Source: a bacterium
Lineage (GTDB): Bacteria; Actinomycetota; Thermoleophilia; Solirubrobacterales; Solirubrobacteraceae
Reading direction: 5' to 3'
Assembly: GCA_021323635.1 (NCBI GenBank)
Contig: JAJPKQ010000028.1
Span: 1-64,000, forward strand
Length of the DNA stretch: 64,000 nucleotides
Below the pieces are notes generated by a model, which saw only the letters and a program-made list of their open reading frames with translations, was not told the origin of the DNA and searched no databases. Below, piece by piece: positions 11,850 to 15,408 of the stretch (positions are counted from its first letter, which is position 1; each line of letters starts with the position of its first letter). A program made the translations under genes and the position numbers.

Positions 11850-13166
11850 TCAGCCTGCCGCGGGAGGCGCCGCTGGAATCGCCGCGCCAGGTGCGCTGCG
11901 CAGCAGCGCGGCGGCGGGCAGGCCCACAACAAGACACGCACCGCAGGCAAAGAGCAGCGCGTGGTGGACCGCCTGCGCATCGGTGCCCGCCGAGAGCGCA
12001 AGACCGGCCAACCCCGCGCCCAGCGCCGCTCCGAGCAGCCGTCCGGCCGAGAGGATCGCCGAGGTGCGTCCATGCAGGGTGGTGGGCATCGAGTTGAGCG
12101 CAGCGCGCGATGTCGGCACAAAAAGCAAGCCGAGGCCGATCCCGACCGGGACGAGCAGCAGGATCGCGAGCGGGCCGGTGAGGGAGACCCCTGGCAGCGC
12201 CAGCACGCCCAGGCCGAGCGCGGCGGCCATGAAGCCGGCAACCAGCGGCGCGCGCTCGCCGGTGCGGTCGCTCAGGCGACCGGCCAGCGGCGCCGCGGCG
12301 CCTACGAGCACGGCGACGAGGATCAGAGCGCCGGCTGCGGCAAGGGCGCTGTAGTGCGCGCTGTGCTGGAGGTACTGCTCGGCAAGGAAGAAGCAGCCGA
12401 TCATGACTGCGAAGGTGAGCGCGGCAAGCACCGCTGCGGCTCCCACATTGCGGTTGCGAAGCACGCCTCCGCCGCTGCGCAGCGCCTCCTCGTGGGCCCG
12501 CGGTGGCAGGAGCCGTGCGACGGAAAGCGCGGCAAGCGCCGCAAGCGGGACAAGACCCCACCAGTCCGCCCGCCAGCCGAGCGTCACCGTCAGCGCTCCG
12601 CCGAGCAGCGGCCCGGCGAGGTTCGATACTCCGGAGGCTGCGCCCCAGATGCCGAGCGCCGCGCCGCGTCGCTCCGGTGGGAAGCCGCTGACCGCGCCCG
12701 CGAGCGCCGCGGGGCTGACCAGGCCCGCGCCCACGCCCTGCAGCCCTCGCGCGAGCAGCAGCACGGCGATATCGCCGGCGAGCGCGCCGGCGGCAGCTCC
12801 CACGGCAAAGAGCGCCAGGCCGAGCAGCGCCAGGCGGCGAGAGCCAAAGCGATCGACGAGCATCCCGCCGGGGAGCAGCGCGATGCCGTAGGCGACGAAG
12901 TAGACGCTCAGCACGGAGGACGTGGCTGCGCTGCTGACGTGCAGGCCGCGCGCAACCGAGGGCAGCGCGACTGTGATCAGCGTCCCGTCGAGCTGGAGCA
13001 GCGCTGCGGCGCCGGTGCAGGCGCCGAGGGCAAGCCACGCAGCGCGTCCTGGCGCCGGCTCGGTCGAGGCGCTTGCATGCGGGCTGTGGGCGCCGCGAGC
13101 GCGCAACAGCAGCGCGCGTGGCCCTGCGCGCGAGGGCGAGACATCCGCTTTGATCTCCGCGCTCAC
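11850..13166 (-). CDS. MFS transporter (drug-resistance type)
   Basis: The 438-residue membrane protein has about 12 helices. Motifs of the DHA-type exporters are visible: LDGTLITVALPSVARGL in TM1, GGMLVDRFGSRR (motif A variant) after TM2, ARGLQGVGAGLVSPAAL in TM4 and SNLAGPLLGGAL (motif C) in TM5. It would export small molecules by proton antiport. The first 40 residues are polar and rich in Arg/Ala/Ser, so a later start cannot be excluded. It lies 6 bases after the DedA gene on the same strand, likely in one transcript. Confidence 0.87.
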   Translation of the reverse strand: MSAEIKADVSPSRAGPRALLLRARGAHSPHASASTEPAPGRAAWLALGACTGAAALLQLDGTLITVALPSVARGLHVSSAATSSVLSVYFVAYGIALLPGGMLVDRFGSRRLALLGLALFAVGAAAGALAGDIAVLLLARGLQGVGAGLVSPAALAGAVSGFPPERRGAALGIWGAASGVSNLAGPLLGGALTVTLGWRADWWGLVPLAALAALSVARLLPPRAHEEALRSGGGVLRNRNVGAAAVLAALTFAVMIGCFFLAEQYLQHSAHYSALAAAGALILVAVLVGAAAPLAGRLSDRTGERAPLVAGFMAAALGLGVLALPGVSLTGPLAILLLVPVGIGLGLLFVPTSRAALNSMPTTLHGRTSAILSAGRLLGAALGAGLAGLALSAGTDAQAVHHALLFACGACLVVGLPAAALLRSAPGAAIPAAPPAAG

Positions 13167-13172
13167 CTGCAG

Positions 13173-13736
13173 TCAGTATGGCGAAGGACCGCGCTGGCGG
13201 CCTCGGCGGCGCGCCAGGCTTGCGATCATGATCGCCACGCCGACCACAAGCAGAATGCGCCCGAGCAGCGAGCTGACGGCGCTCCAGGCGCCGCCGGCCG
13301 CCAGCCCGACGAGGATGAAGCCGACCGCCCAGAGCGCGCTGCCAACGATCGTCAGCGCGACGAAGGGCGCGATCGGCACGCTGCGGCTGCCGGCAGGGAG
13401 CGACACGAACGTGCGCGCGAGCGGCAGCAGCCGCGCGATCAGCACCGCGGATGTGCCGCGGCGATCGATCAGCTCCCCCCAGCGCTCGGTCACAGCGTCG
13501 AGGCAAGACACCCGGCAGAGCACGCCCGAGCGGCCGATCCCGTAGGCGATCAGCGAGCCGATCAGGTTGCCGCCGGTCGCGGCGGTCACCGCCAGCGGGA
13601 AGCTCATCCAGCCCGCCCCGACCGCGACGCCGGAGAAGATCAGCGTCACCTCGCTGGGAATCGGGATGCATGCGCTCTCGGGCACCATCAGCAGAAAGAC
13701 GCCCCACGCGCCGTAGCTTGTGATCAGCGCTGTCAT
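13173..13736 (-). CDS. DedA-family (VTT domain) membrane protein
   Basis: The 187-residue protein matches the DedA/SNARE-associated family of proton-coupled lipid scramblases or transporters, including those that recycle undecaprenyl phosphate. Diagnostic segments are PESACIPIPSEVTLIFSG, GGNLIGSLIAYGIGRSG (the G-x-x-x-G region) and ARLLPLARTFVSLPAG with the conserved arginines. Four to five hydrophobic helices can be drawn. It begins 4 bases inside the end of the recombinase-like gene (ATGA overlap), so it is translated from the same message. Confidence 0.88.
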   Translation of the reverse strand: MTALITSYGAWGVFLLMVPESACIPIPSEVTLIFSGVAVGAGWMSFPLAVTAATGGNLIGSLIAYGIGRSGVLCRVSCLDAVTERWGELIDRRGTSAVLIARLLPLARTFVSLPAGSRSVPIAPFVALTIVGSALWAVGFILVGLAAGGAWSAVSSLLGRILLVVGVAIMIASLARRRGRQRGPSPY

Positions 13737-14395
13737 CGTGGCGGCCGTGGCGGCCGTGGCGGCTTGGGCGCCGGTCCGCGAGCTCTCGCCGCCGGGTCGT
13801 GCGGCGGTGGTGGCAGCGGTGGCGCTCCGCGCAGCAGCGGCTCAGGGCGGCGGTAGCCGAGGGCCGCCTGCACGCTCGATGGGCGCCAGCGCTTGCCCCC
13901 GCGCGGTGTCGGGATGCCCGCCTCATTGAGCTGGCGCGCGATCGCCTGTGGTCCCATGCCGCGCGCCTGAAGCTCGCCGATCAGCGCGTGCAGCTGGGGG
14001 TTGCGCTCCGCAAGCCCCGGACGTCCCGGCCCTCTGCGCGCGCCCGGGCGCTCGCGCTCCCAGGCGGCCAGCCGGCAGAGCAGCGAAGCCGCAAGCGCCC
14101 CGCCGGCCTCGCGCGTGTCAAGCCCGCTGTCGGCCACAAGCAGGTGCGCGCCCGCCTGCTCCAGCCACTGCAGGAGCGCCGCAAGCTCACGCAAGCTGCC
14201 GACGATCAGCTCGAGGCGCTCGGCCCCCAGCAGCTGCGCCTCCCCGCTGCCGATTAGCTGCAGCGCGCGCGCCAGCACCGACGCGTGCTCGGCTGAGCTG
14301 ATCAGCGCAATAACATCAAGCTGATGGCGCTCCTGCAAGGCGGGCAGCGCCTCGCGAGCGGGAAGCTCTGAGACCCAGACGGCAGCGGTTGCCAT
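13733..14395 (-). CDS. Serine-recombinase-like protein with eroded catalytic motifs
   Basis: The 220-residue protein aligns by eye with serine recombinases. Residues about 60-115 mirror the block that ends in helix E (LLVADSGLDTREAGG then RLAAWERE). Residues about 125-180 read as the Recombinase DNA-binding domain (HALIGELQARGMGPQAIARQ, then GIPTPRGGKRWRPSSVQAAL). Ser9 in AVWVSEL could be the nucleophile, but the usual YxRVS arginine and the D-R-L-x-R active-site block are not present. It is more likely a DNA-binding protein derived from a recombinase than an active enzyme. The C-terminus is a Pro/Arg run made by a 9-base tandem repeat. Confidence 0.6.
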   Translation of the reverse strand: MATAAVWVSELPAREALPALQERHQLDVIALISSAEHASVLARALQLIGSGEAQLLGAERLELIVGSLRELAALLQWLEQAGAHLLVADSGLDTREAGGALAASLLCRLAAWERERPGARRGPGRPGLAERNPQLHALIGELQARGMGPQAIARQLNEAGIPTPRGGKRWRPSSVQAALGYRRPEPLLRGAPPLPPPPHDPAARARGPAPKPPRPPRPPR

Positions 14396-14401
14396 GATCA
14401 G

Positions 14402-14425
14402 ATTATACGCAAATAGTTTGCGTAT
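14402..14425 (-). promoter_or_regulatory. Perfect 21-bp palindrome overlapping a consensus -10 (TATAAT)
   Basis: ATACGCAAA-TAG-TTTGCGTAT (14405-14425) has perfect 9-base arms. On the minus strand its end runs into TATAAT (14407-14402), which stands 6 bases before the ATG of the recombinase-like gene. Transcription would therefore start at about the initiation codon and the mRNA would be leaderless. A protein bound to the palindrome would block the promoter; the adjacent DNA-binding protein is the obvious candidate. Confidence 0.65.
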
Positions 14426-14550
14426 GGCGGAGTATGCTGCCTGCTCCCGCCGACCGCTCGCTCTGCGAGACTGCAGGTCGTGAGCGCAATCGAGTCAGGC
14501 TGCCTTGCGGGGCTGTGCGGCCCCGCCGCAGAGAGCGGCGGCGGAGCCTG

Positions 14551-15408
14551 ATGGCAGCGGCGACGATCGAACCCGGCGCAGCGGCGATCGTGGTTGCCGC
14601 GGGCCTGCCGTGCGCGCTGCGCTACAGGCGCACGCCGCAGCTCCCGCATGAGCGCGCTCGGCGCGGTGCGCACCTGCGTATGCTGCTTTTCGCTGCCGGC
14701 GCGGCTGCCTACCTGGCCGCCTACTTCGGCCTCGCTCAGGCGGCACGCTCCTCACTGGTGATGCACGAAGCGAGGCTTTTGATCGGCGGCGAACTTGCCG
14801 GCGCGCTGCTTGCGCTCGCCCTCGTGGCGCCGCCGGCGGCAGGCCGCAAGCGCGCTGGGCTGCTGCGCTTTCCCACCGGCCCGGCGCCGGCGGTGGCGCT
14901 GTGGGTCGCAAACCTCTGCATCTGGCACCTGCAGGCGGCGCTCGAGGGGTCAATCCACCACCCTGCGATCGGCGCGATCGAGTACGTCTGCTTCGCTGCC
15001 GCAGCGACGAACATGTGGCTGGCGCTCGCGCGCCGGTGGGGCGACAATCGCGGGCGTGAGCTGGGCGCCGTGCTCTATACCGCCGCCATTCGCATACCTG
15101 GCGTGGCGCTCGCCAACCTCCTGCTGTGGTCGGGAACGGTCTTCTACCCGTGGTACATCCACCCGAGCGTCGTCCGCCAGACTTCGCCGCTGGTCGACCA
15201 GAATGTCGCTGGGGCGGTGCTGCTGTTCGCAAACGTCCTGCTCGCCCTGGCGGTGCTGGGCGGCGCCTATCTCAGCGCGCGCTCGCGCCTGGCAGTGCTT
15301 GCCTCCGGCCACAGCCGGGCGGCGCACGCGCCCGAGCCCGTGCTCGACGGCGCGATTCAGGCCGCGCGCAGCTTGGTGGAGGGCTCCGCCTCGGGTGCGG
15401 GCTCCTGA
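14551..15408 (+). CDS. Cytochrome c oxidase assembly factor CtaG-like membrane protein
   Basis: The 285-residue protein has about 7 hydrophobic helices. It resembles the caa3-type CtaG family of copper-delivery and assembly factors for haem-copper oxidases: SLVMHEARLLIGGELAGALL, WHLQAALEGSIHHPAIGAIE and NLLLWSGTVFYPWYI carry the conserved His and aromatic residues. ATG 14551 is preferred over the frame opening at 14434, because the earlier part is Arg-rich and non-homologous. No oxidase genes are nearby. The last 52 bases overlap the convergent GGDEF-EAL gene. Confidence 0.7.
   Translation: MAAATIEPGAAAIVVAAGLPCALRYRRTPQLPHERARRGAHLRMLLFAAGAAAYLAAYFGLAQAARSSLVMHEARLLIGGELAGALLALALVAPPAAGRKRAGLLRFPTGPAPAVALWVANLCIWHLQAALEGSIHHPAIGAIEYVCFAAAATNMWLALARRWGDNRGRELGAVLYTAAIRIPGVALANLLLWSGTVFYPWYIHPSVVRQTSPLVDQNVAGAVLLFANVLLALAVLGGAYLSARSRLAVLASGHSRAAHAPEPVLDGAIQAARSLVEGSASGAGS

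What the first reader, a model, noticed from the sequence alone, without database searches (positions are those of the whole stretch)
13733..14425. Recombinase-derived protein behind a perfect palindrome and leaderless promoter
The ATACGCAAA-TAG-TTTGCGTAT dyad ends in TATAAT, 6 bases before the ATG. The protein keeps the recombinase DNA-binding domain but lost most of the catalytic block. It may be a domesticated recombinase serving as a repressor of its own operon, including the DedA and MFS genes downstream.
Basis: partly seen in the sequence, partly recalled or inferred. Interest (0 to 1): 0.58.

Follow-up and report, generated by a model that had tools for sequence, protein, structure and literature searches.

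The report
Dead DNA recombinase turned gene switch
A soil-type actinobacterium appears to have turned a broken DNA-cutting recombinase into a small switch protein that controls its own operon through a perfect DNA palindrome, and in close relatives the same slot is filled by an ordinary MarR repressor.

Summary
The 21-bp dyad ATACGCAAA-N3-TTTGCGTAT (14405-14425) is real and unique in its genome at 3 or fewer mismatches. It overlaps a TATAAT that lies 6 nt before the ATG of ORF 14395..13733(-). The protein is a serine recombinase by fold. Its catalytic arginines R8, R68 and R71 are gone in all 4 readable orthologs, while the GRP hook and helix-turn-helix are kept.

Two new results point to a regulator. 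In relatives with the same DedA gene but no recombinase-like gene, a divergent MarR gene sits there instead, without this dyad. Five of 9 catalytically intact relatives carry 24-26-bp dyads with similar outer half-sites upstream; the dead orthologs have a linker about 10 residues shorter, a dyad 3-5 bp shorter, and no CGACCG-like core.

Best reading: a domesticated, catalytically dead serine recombinase that represses its own leaderless operon with DedA. Binding is untested.

The parts
14405..14425 (.). 21-bp dyad ATACGCAAA-N3-TTTGCGTAT, proposed operator
14402..14407 (-). TATAAT -10-like hexamer overlapping the right arm of the dyad, 6 nt before ATG (leaderless arrangement)
   Evidence: TANNNT kept in 4 of 4 orthologs; genome-wide peak at gap 6-7
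13733..14395 (-). degenerate serine recombinase, 220 aa, proposed repressor
14045..14395 (-). catalytic-domain fold (residues 1-117) without R8, R68, R71 equivalents
13844..14026 (-). GRP hook plus helix-turn-helix region (residues 124-184); 32 of residues 120-184 are invariant in 4 orthologs
13736..13843 (-). proline/arginine-rich C-terminal tail (residues 185-220)
13173..13736 (-). DedA/VTT-domain membrane protein, ATGA overlap with the recombinase gene
11850..13166 (-). MFS transporter, 6 bp after DedA; probable operon member in this genome only

Best explanation
The ORF is a domesticated, catalytically dead small serine recombinase that works as a dimeric transcription repressor. It binds the 21-bp dyad through its helix-turn-helix (outer TACGC letters, major groove) and its GRP hook (inner A/T tract, minor groove). 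The dyad covers the -10 region of a leaderless promoter, so binding shuts off its own gene and the co-transcribed DedA gene (and, in this genome, probably the MFS gene). Shown by computation: fold, loss of catalytic residues, conserved dyad, unique site, swap with MarR, related half-sites at intact relatives. Inferred: that this protein is what binds, that it is a dimer, that binding represses, and what relieves it.
For: (1) Pattern search without regard to genes: the 3 sites with 0-1 mismatch among 232 genomes of the order are all directly 5' of an ortholog (with 13, 14); the 4th ortholog with upstream DNA, G170, keeps the right arm and TATAAT with a damaged left arm. (2) Dyad position fixed at -29/-31 to -9/-11 of ATG; arms conserved, spacer and flanks not. 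(3) The site follows the recombinase gene, not DedA: G170 has gene and site but no DedA next to it; G039, G189, G010, G009 have the DedA (50-63% identity) but neither gene nor site. (4) In those 4 DedA loci a divergent MarR gene takes the regulator's place (Pfam MarR_2 7e-11 to 1e-14 for the 3 scanned). (5) AF2 pLDDT 87.4; serine recombinase fold. (6) R68 and R71 lost in 4 of 4, R8 lost in 4 of 4, S10 lost in 2 of 4 (R8 and S10 of G000 and G177 read by eye because they fall in an alignment gap). (7) DNA-binding region kept best: 32 invariant of residues 120-184 against 24 of 1-115 (counted). (8) Intact relatives: 5 of 9 have a 24-26-bp even-centred dyad with TAC..GTA ends upstream, 0 such in 484 kb background; linker 40 aa in all 5 dead orthologs against 47-52 in the 9 intact ones.
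Against: No binding or expression data. Only 5 orthologs in 2 genera of one family; none further in 399 class genomes. G170's left arm has 3 changes. The half-site of intact relatives (TACAGCAA, TACCGCA) is offset by one base from TACGCAAA in 3 of 5 cases, and the dyad criterion was chosen after seeing the first examples; L118 and L119 are related, so the tested loci are not independent. Four of 9 intact relatives lack such a dyad. MFS linkage is not seen elsewhere. No -35 box is conserved among the four upstream regions.
Confidence: 0.77

Rival explanations
1. The dyad is bound by another, unlinked repressor (TetR-, MarR- or PadR-like), and the recombinase-like gene is only its target.
For: Shape and position also suit such a repressor; binding by the encoded protein is not shown.
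Against: In the stretches read around the 4 orthologs, no regulator gene is shared other than the recombinase-like gene (only about 1.5 kb each side). The site is single-copy per genome apart from one 2-mismatch copy at the end of an unrelated ORF in G177, and is absent from genomes without the ortholog, bar one unrelated 2-mismatch copy in G207. Intact relatives of the same recombinase family carry related half-sites.
Confidence: 0.15
2. The protein is a still active or conditionally active recombinase and the dyad its recombination site.
For: S10 is kept in 2 of 4 orthologs; intact relatives have dyads in the same kind of place.
Against: R8, R68 and R71 are lost in 4 of 4; the window's own residue at S10 is proline by eye. 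The dyad has an odd 3-bp centre, lacks the CGACCG-like core of 4 of the 5 intact-relative dyads, and is single copy in its genome.
Confidence: 0.03
3. The gene is a decaying remnant without function and the dyad a leftover half of the ancestral element's recombination site.
For: Catalytic residues are lost; distribution is patchy.
Against: The frame is open in the orthologs at 42-49% identity, with conservation concentrated in the DNA-binding region; dyad arms are conserved while spacer and flanks have diverged; linkage with DedA is kept in 4 of 5.
Confidence: 0.05

Closest known systems
Tn3/gamma-delta resolvase (TnpR)
   Same: Same fold; binds dyads that overlap promoters and represses its own gene and tnpA (passages of PMC7157771)
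   Different: TnpR is an active recombinase on a transposon with a multi-part res site; here catalytic arginines are gone, the site is a single 21-bp dyad with an odd centre, and the gene sits in a chromosomal operon with DedA
Catalytically intact small serine recombinases of Solirubrobacterales and Egibacteraceae (L116, L118, L119, L121, L028)
   Same: Similar helix-turn-helix region and related TAC(N)GCA-type half-sites upstream
   Different: They keep the catalytic motifs and have 24-26-bp even-centred dyads and 49-51-residue linkers
MarR-family genes next to DedA (G039, G189, G010, G009)
   Same: Occupy the same regulatory position beside the same DedA gene
   Different: Unrelated fold, divergent orientation, different A+T-rich intergenic motif

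Membership tests
Small serine recombinases (resolvase/invertase) | Resolvase catalytic-domain fold | tested here: met
   AF2 pLDDT 87.4; VIA Z 14.8 to 3bvp_B, 13.0 to 3guv; Pfam Resolvase 2.1e-6
Small serine recombinases (resolvase/invertase) | Catalytic Ser10 and Arg8, Arg68, Arg71 (gamma-delta numbering, role recalled) | tested here: not met
   Window: P12, E10 (by eye), L, G; R8, R68, R71 lost in 4 of 4 orthologs, S10 in 2 of 4
Small serine recombinases (resolvase/invertase) | C-terminal helix-turn-helix with GRP hook | tested here: met
   Helices 133-144, 149-158, 172-178; GRPGL invariant in 4 orthologs
Small serine recombinases (resolvase/invertase) | Crossover site with a 2-bp centre (recalled) | tested here: not met
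   Dyad is 21 bp with an odd 3-bp spacer in 4 of 4 orthologs
Small serine recombinases (resolvase/invertase) | Recombination activity | not testable with these tools
   none
Autoregulatory DNA-binding repressors | Operator over own promoter, conserved in orthologs | tested here: met
   4 of 4 orthologs with readable upstream DNA, one with a damaged arm
Autoregulatory DNA-binding repressors | Specific binding and repression | not testable with these tools
   none

The most novel reading that the evidence does not exclude
Solirubrobacterales have built a whole family of transcription regulators from dead serine recombinases. Some are soluble autorepressors like this one, derived by losing catalysis, shortening the linker and compacting the ancestral recombination site by 3-5 bp while dropping its crossover core; others are membrane-anchored behind peptidoglycan-binding domains and could couple cell-wall state to DNA binding.
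Probability: 0.4. Interest if true: 0.78.

Novelty: new variant of a known kind. Interest (0 to 1): 0.63.

Why it matters
Autorepression by active resolvases is old knowledge (Tn3 TnpR; PMC7157771, passages). A chromosomal, catalytically dead serine recombinase that has become a dedicated repressor, interchangeable with MarR in front of the same gene, was not found in the searches made (listings; passages of the review PMC8987985, where the serine recombinases I saw are active resolvases, invertases and integration enzymes). The intact relatives give before-and-after versions of both protein and site, so the steps from recombinase to repressor can be tested directly. It would also give DedA genes of these bacteria a regulator.

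Tried and rejected
Search for relatives in IMG/VR viral contigs: 43 stretches matched a pattern, none confirmed, so no phage source was found. Inverted repeats in front of the other family members: apart from the orthologs and some intact relatives, what was found was mostly G+C-rich and not or barely above shuffles; the start codons there were chosen crudely. A conserved -35 box: none. Transcription terminator: the dyad has no T run and in the window the upstream gene is divergent. The two 2-mismatch sites G177:C389 and G207:C191 lie at the end of an unrelated ORF and just past the 3' end of a dehydrogenase-like ORF (naming by eye) and were treated as chance. DedA tree: recombinase-type and MarR-type loci interleave with low support, so neither number nor direction of regulator swaps can be told. 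Intact-relative test: of 14 loci, L116-L123 entered together with L028; L124, L126, L127 and L129 were not given to it (truncated, wrong frame or degenerate), and L125 and L128 were given but dropped out by its filter, so 9 of the 11 given were counted; one search shows no TAC..GTA dyad of 26 bp for L125 and L128. G009's MarR-like frame looks broken and was not scanned. PDB sequence search gave only weak matches (gamma-delta resolvase 2gm4 at E 0.49).

Full report
What is there. On the minus strand, ORF 14395..13733 (220 aa) starts 6 nt after a TATAAT (14402-14407) that overlaps the right arm of the dyad 14405-14425. The dyad occurs once in the 2.64-Mb genome at up to 3 mismatches. The stop codon overlaps the start of a DedA/VTT gene (13736..13173) as ATGA, and an MFS gene (GTG at 13166) starts 6 bp after DedA. 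No convincing terminator separates them (one weak match inside DedA, two inside MFS). Upstream lies a divergent CtaG-like gene.

The protein. Pfam sees part of Resolvase and part of Recombinase. AlphaFold2 with 29 aligned sequences gave mean pLDDT 87.4. The best solved folds are serine recombinase catalytic domains (TP901-1 Z 14.8, resolvase-family 3guv Z 13.0), and Tn3/gamma-delta complexes align up to about residue 182, in the DNA-binding domain, though with large rmsd over both domains. Using the intact member L011 to mark gamma-delta positions (residue numbers and their catalytic role are recalled), R68 and R71 are lost in all 4 readable orthologs and R8 in all 4, S10 in 2 of 4, R45 in 1 of 4 (for the window and G177, R8 and S10 fall in an alignment gap and were read by eye as the residues after the Y6 position). 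In the family alignment of 29 rows, 28 reach this region; 5 keep all of R8, S10, R68, R71 and 23 lack R8. So dead recombinases are common in this order, and the window protein is one of a small orthologous group.

Orthologs. A profile of the first three orthologs hit 58 of 232 genomes of the order at E 1e-3, but only G177, G018, G000 and G170 score above 230 bits; the next is 153 bits. G176 has a fifth copy cut by its contig start (L051). A class-wide search of 399 genomes, in which G170 and G176 gave no hit at E 1e-40 and may not have been drawn, added none.

The dyad is conserved. A search for the dyad alone, up to 2 mismatches, hit 4 of 232 genomes: the three sites with 0-1 mismatch lie directly before orthologs, the two with 2 mismatches (one in G177, one in G207) do not. 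A class-wide search (399 genomes, 1 mismatch to RTACGCAAANNNTTTGCGTAY) added nothing. G170 keeps TTTGCGTATAAT exactly but has 3 changes in the left arm. Anchored on the dyad, 14 of 18 arm columns are invariant in 4 of 4, and 7 of 74 flanking columns are; the spacer varies (Fisher 2e-8). The hexamers TATAAT, TATAAT, TATGCT, TACACT end 5-7 nt before ATG. In 411 kb of the own genome the same hexamer class peaks at 6-7 nt before candidate starts, so leaderless genes are probably frequent here.

The site goes with the recombinase gene, and MarR can replace it. DedA follows the gene in G000, G018, G177 and G176; in G170 an ArsB-like transporter (read by eye) follows. A DedA search of 146 family genomes gave 8 genomes with hits of 50% identity or more, own included. 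Four have the recombinase-like gene; the other four (G039, G189, G010, G009) have instead a divergent MarR gene (three confirmed by Pfam; G009 by eye and perhaps broken) and no copy of this dyad, but a different shared A+T-rich intergenic stretch. On a DedA tree the two types interleave with low support. That a known repressor family fills the same slot is the best indirect sign that the recombinase-like protein is a repressor.

Ancestral sites. Among 9 catalytically intact relatives counted, 5 have a 24- or 26-bp even-centred dyad ending TAC..GTA with at least 9 pairs within 200 bp upstream: L116 GTACGCTTGACGACCGTTTTGCGTAC, L118 GTACAGCAATCGACCGTTTGCTGTAT, L119 GTACAGCAATCGGTCGTTTGCTGTAC, L121 TTACGCATCCGACCCGTTGCGTAA, L028 TTACCGCAGCCCTTCGGTTGCGGTAA; none occurs in 484 kb of background. 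The criterion came from the first examples, and L118 and L119 are related, so the script's binomial value (1.6e-15) should not be taken at face value. Half-sites of L116 and L121 match the window's TACGC directly; the other three carry one extra base. Four of the five share a CGACCG-like core (in L119 on the other strand; CGACCC in L121). The dead orthologs' dyads keep the half-sites, lack that core, are 21 bp with an odd centre, and their linker from the helix-E tryptophan to the helix-turn-helix is 40 residues in 5 of 5, against 47-52 in the intact 9. A shorter arm with a shorter site is what a protein that binds but no longer cuts would be free to evolve; this step is inference.

Mechanism and literature. 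Tn3 TnpR represses from res sites that hold promoters (PMC7157771, passages), and in Tn3 resolvase the AT-hook motif between helix E and the DNA-binding domain docks in the minor groove (PMC9943657, passages). The same layout (GRP hook over AAA/TTT, helix-turn-helix over the outer TACGC) fits the window's dyad by inference. Searches for dead serine recombinases as regulators (listings, passages of the review PMC8987985) showed none.

Verdict. Observation confirmed; interpretation supported, with the catalytic point corrected and the MFS part limited to this genome. Not shown: binding, dimer, repression, inducer.

Noticed in passing
L013 (1477-3252 -), L042 (541-2118 +); also L007, L009, L010, L015, L029, L052: Degenerate recombinase domains fused behind peptidoglycan-binding domains and an apparent transmembrane stretch (PG_binding_1 and Resolvase both by Pfam for L013 and L042; the others by eye). 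They look like membrane-anchored DNA-binding proteins facing the cell wall.
   Followed up: partly
L006, L045 and relatives (genus g13): Degenerate recombinases with N-terminal hydrophobic segments and no PG-binding domain, often several copies per genome.
   Followed up: no
L004, L044: Proteins that by eye have two resolvase-like domains in tandem, the first without helix-turn-helix.
   Followed up: no
L064, L065, L068, L070 (MarR-DedA intergenic): Shared A+T-rich stretch like TTAGATAAGTAGACTTAACATCTAAG between divergent MarR and DedA genes, a likely MarR operator.
   Followed up: partly
window 13736-13843, and MarR tails in L064, L065, L068: Both the recombinase-like regulators and the MarR proteins beside DedA end in proline/arginine-rich tails; meaning unknown.
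   Followed up: no
own genome, L096-L115 and window: TATAAT-like hexamers peak 6-7 nt before candidate start codons (8 each against about 1), pointing to many leaderless genes.
   Followed up: partly
window 14542-15408 +: Divergent CtaG-like gene starts beyond the dyad; whether the dyad also affects it is open.
   Followed up: no
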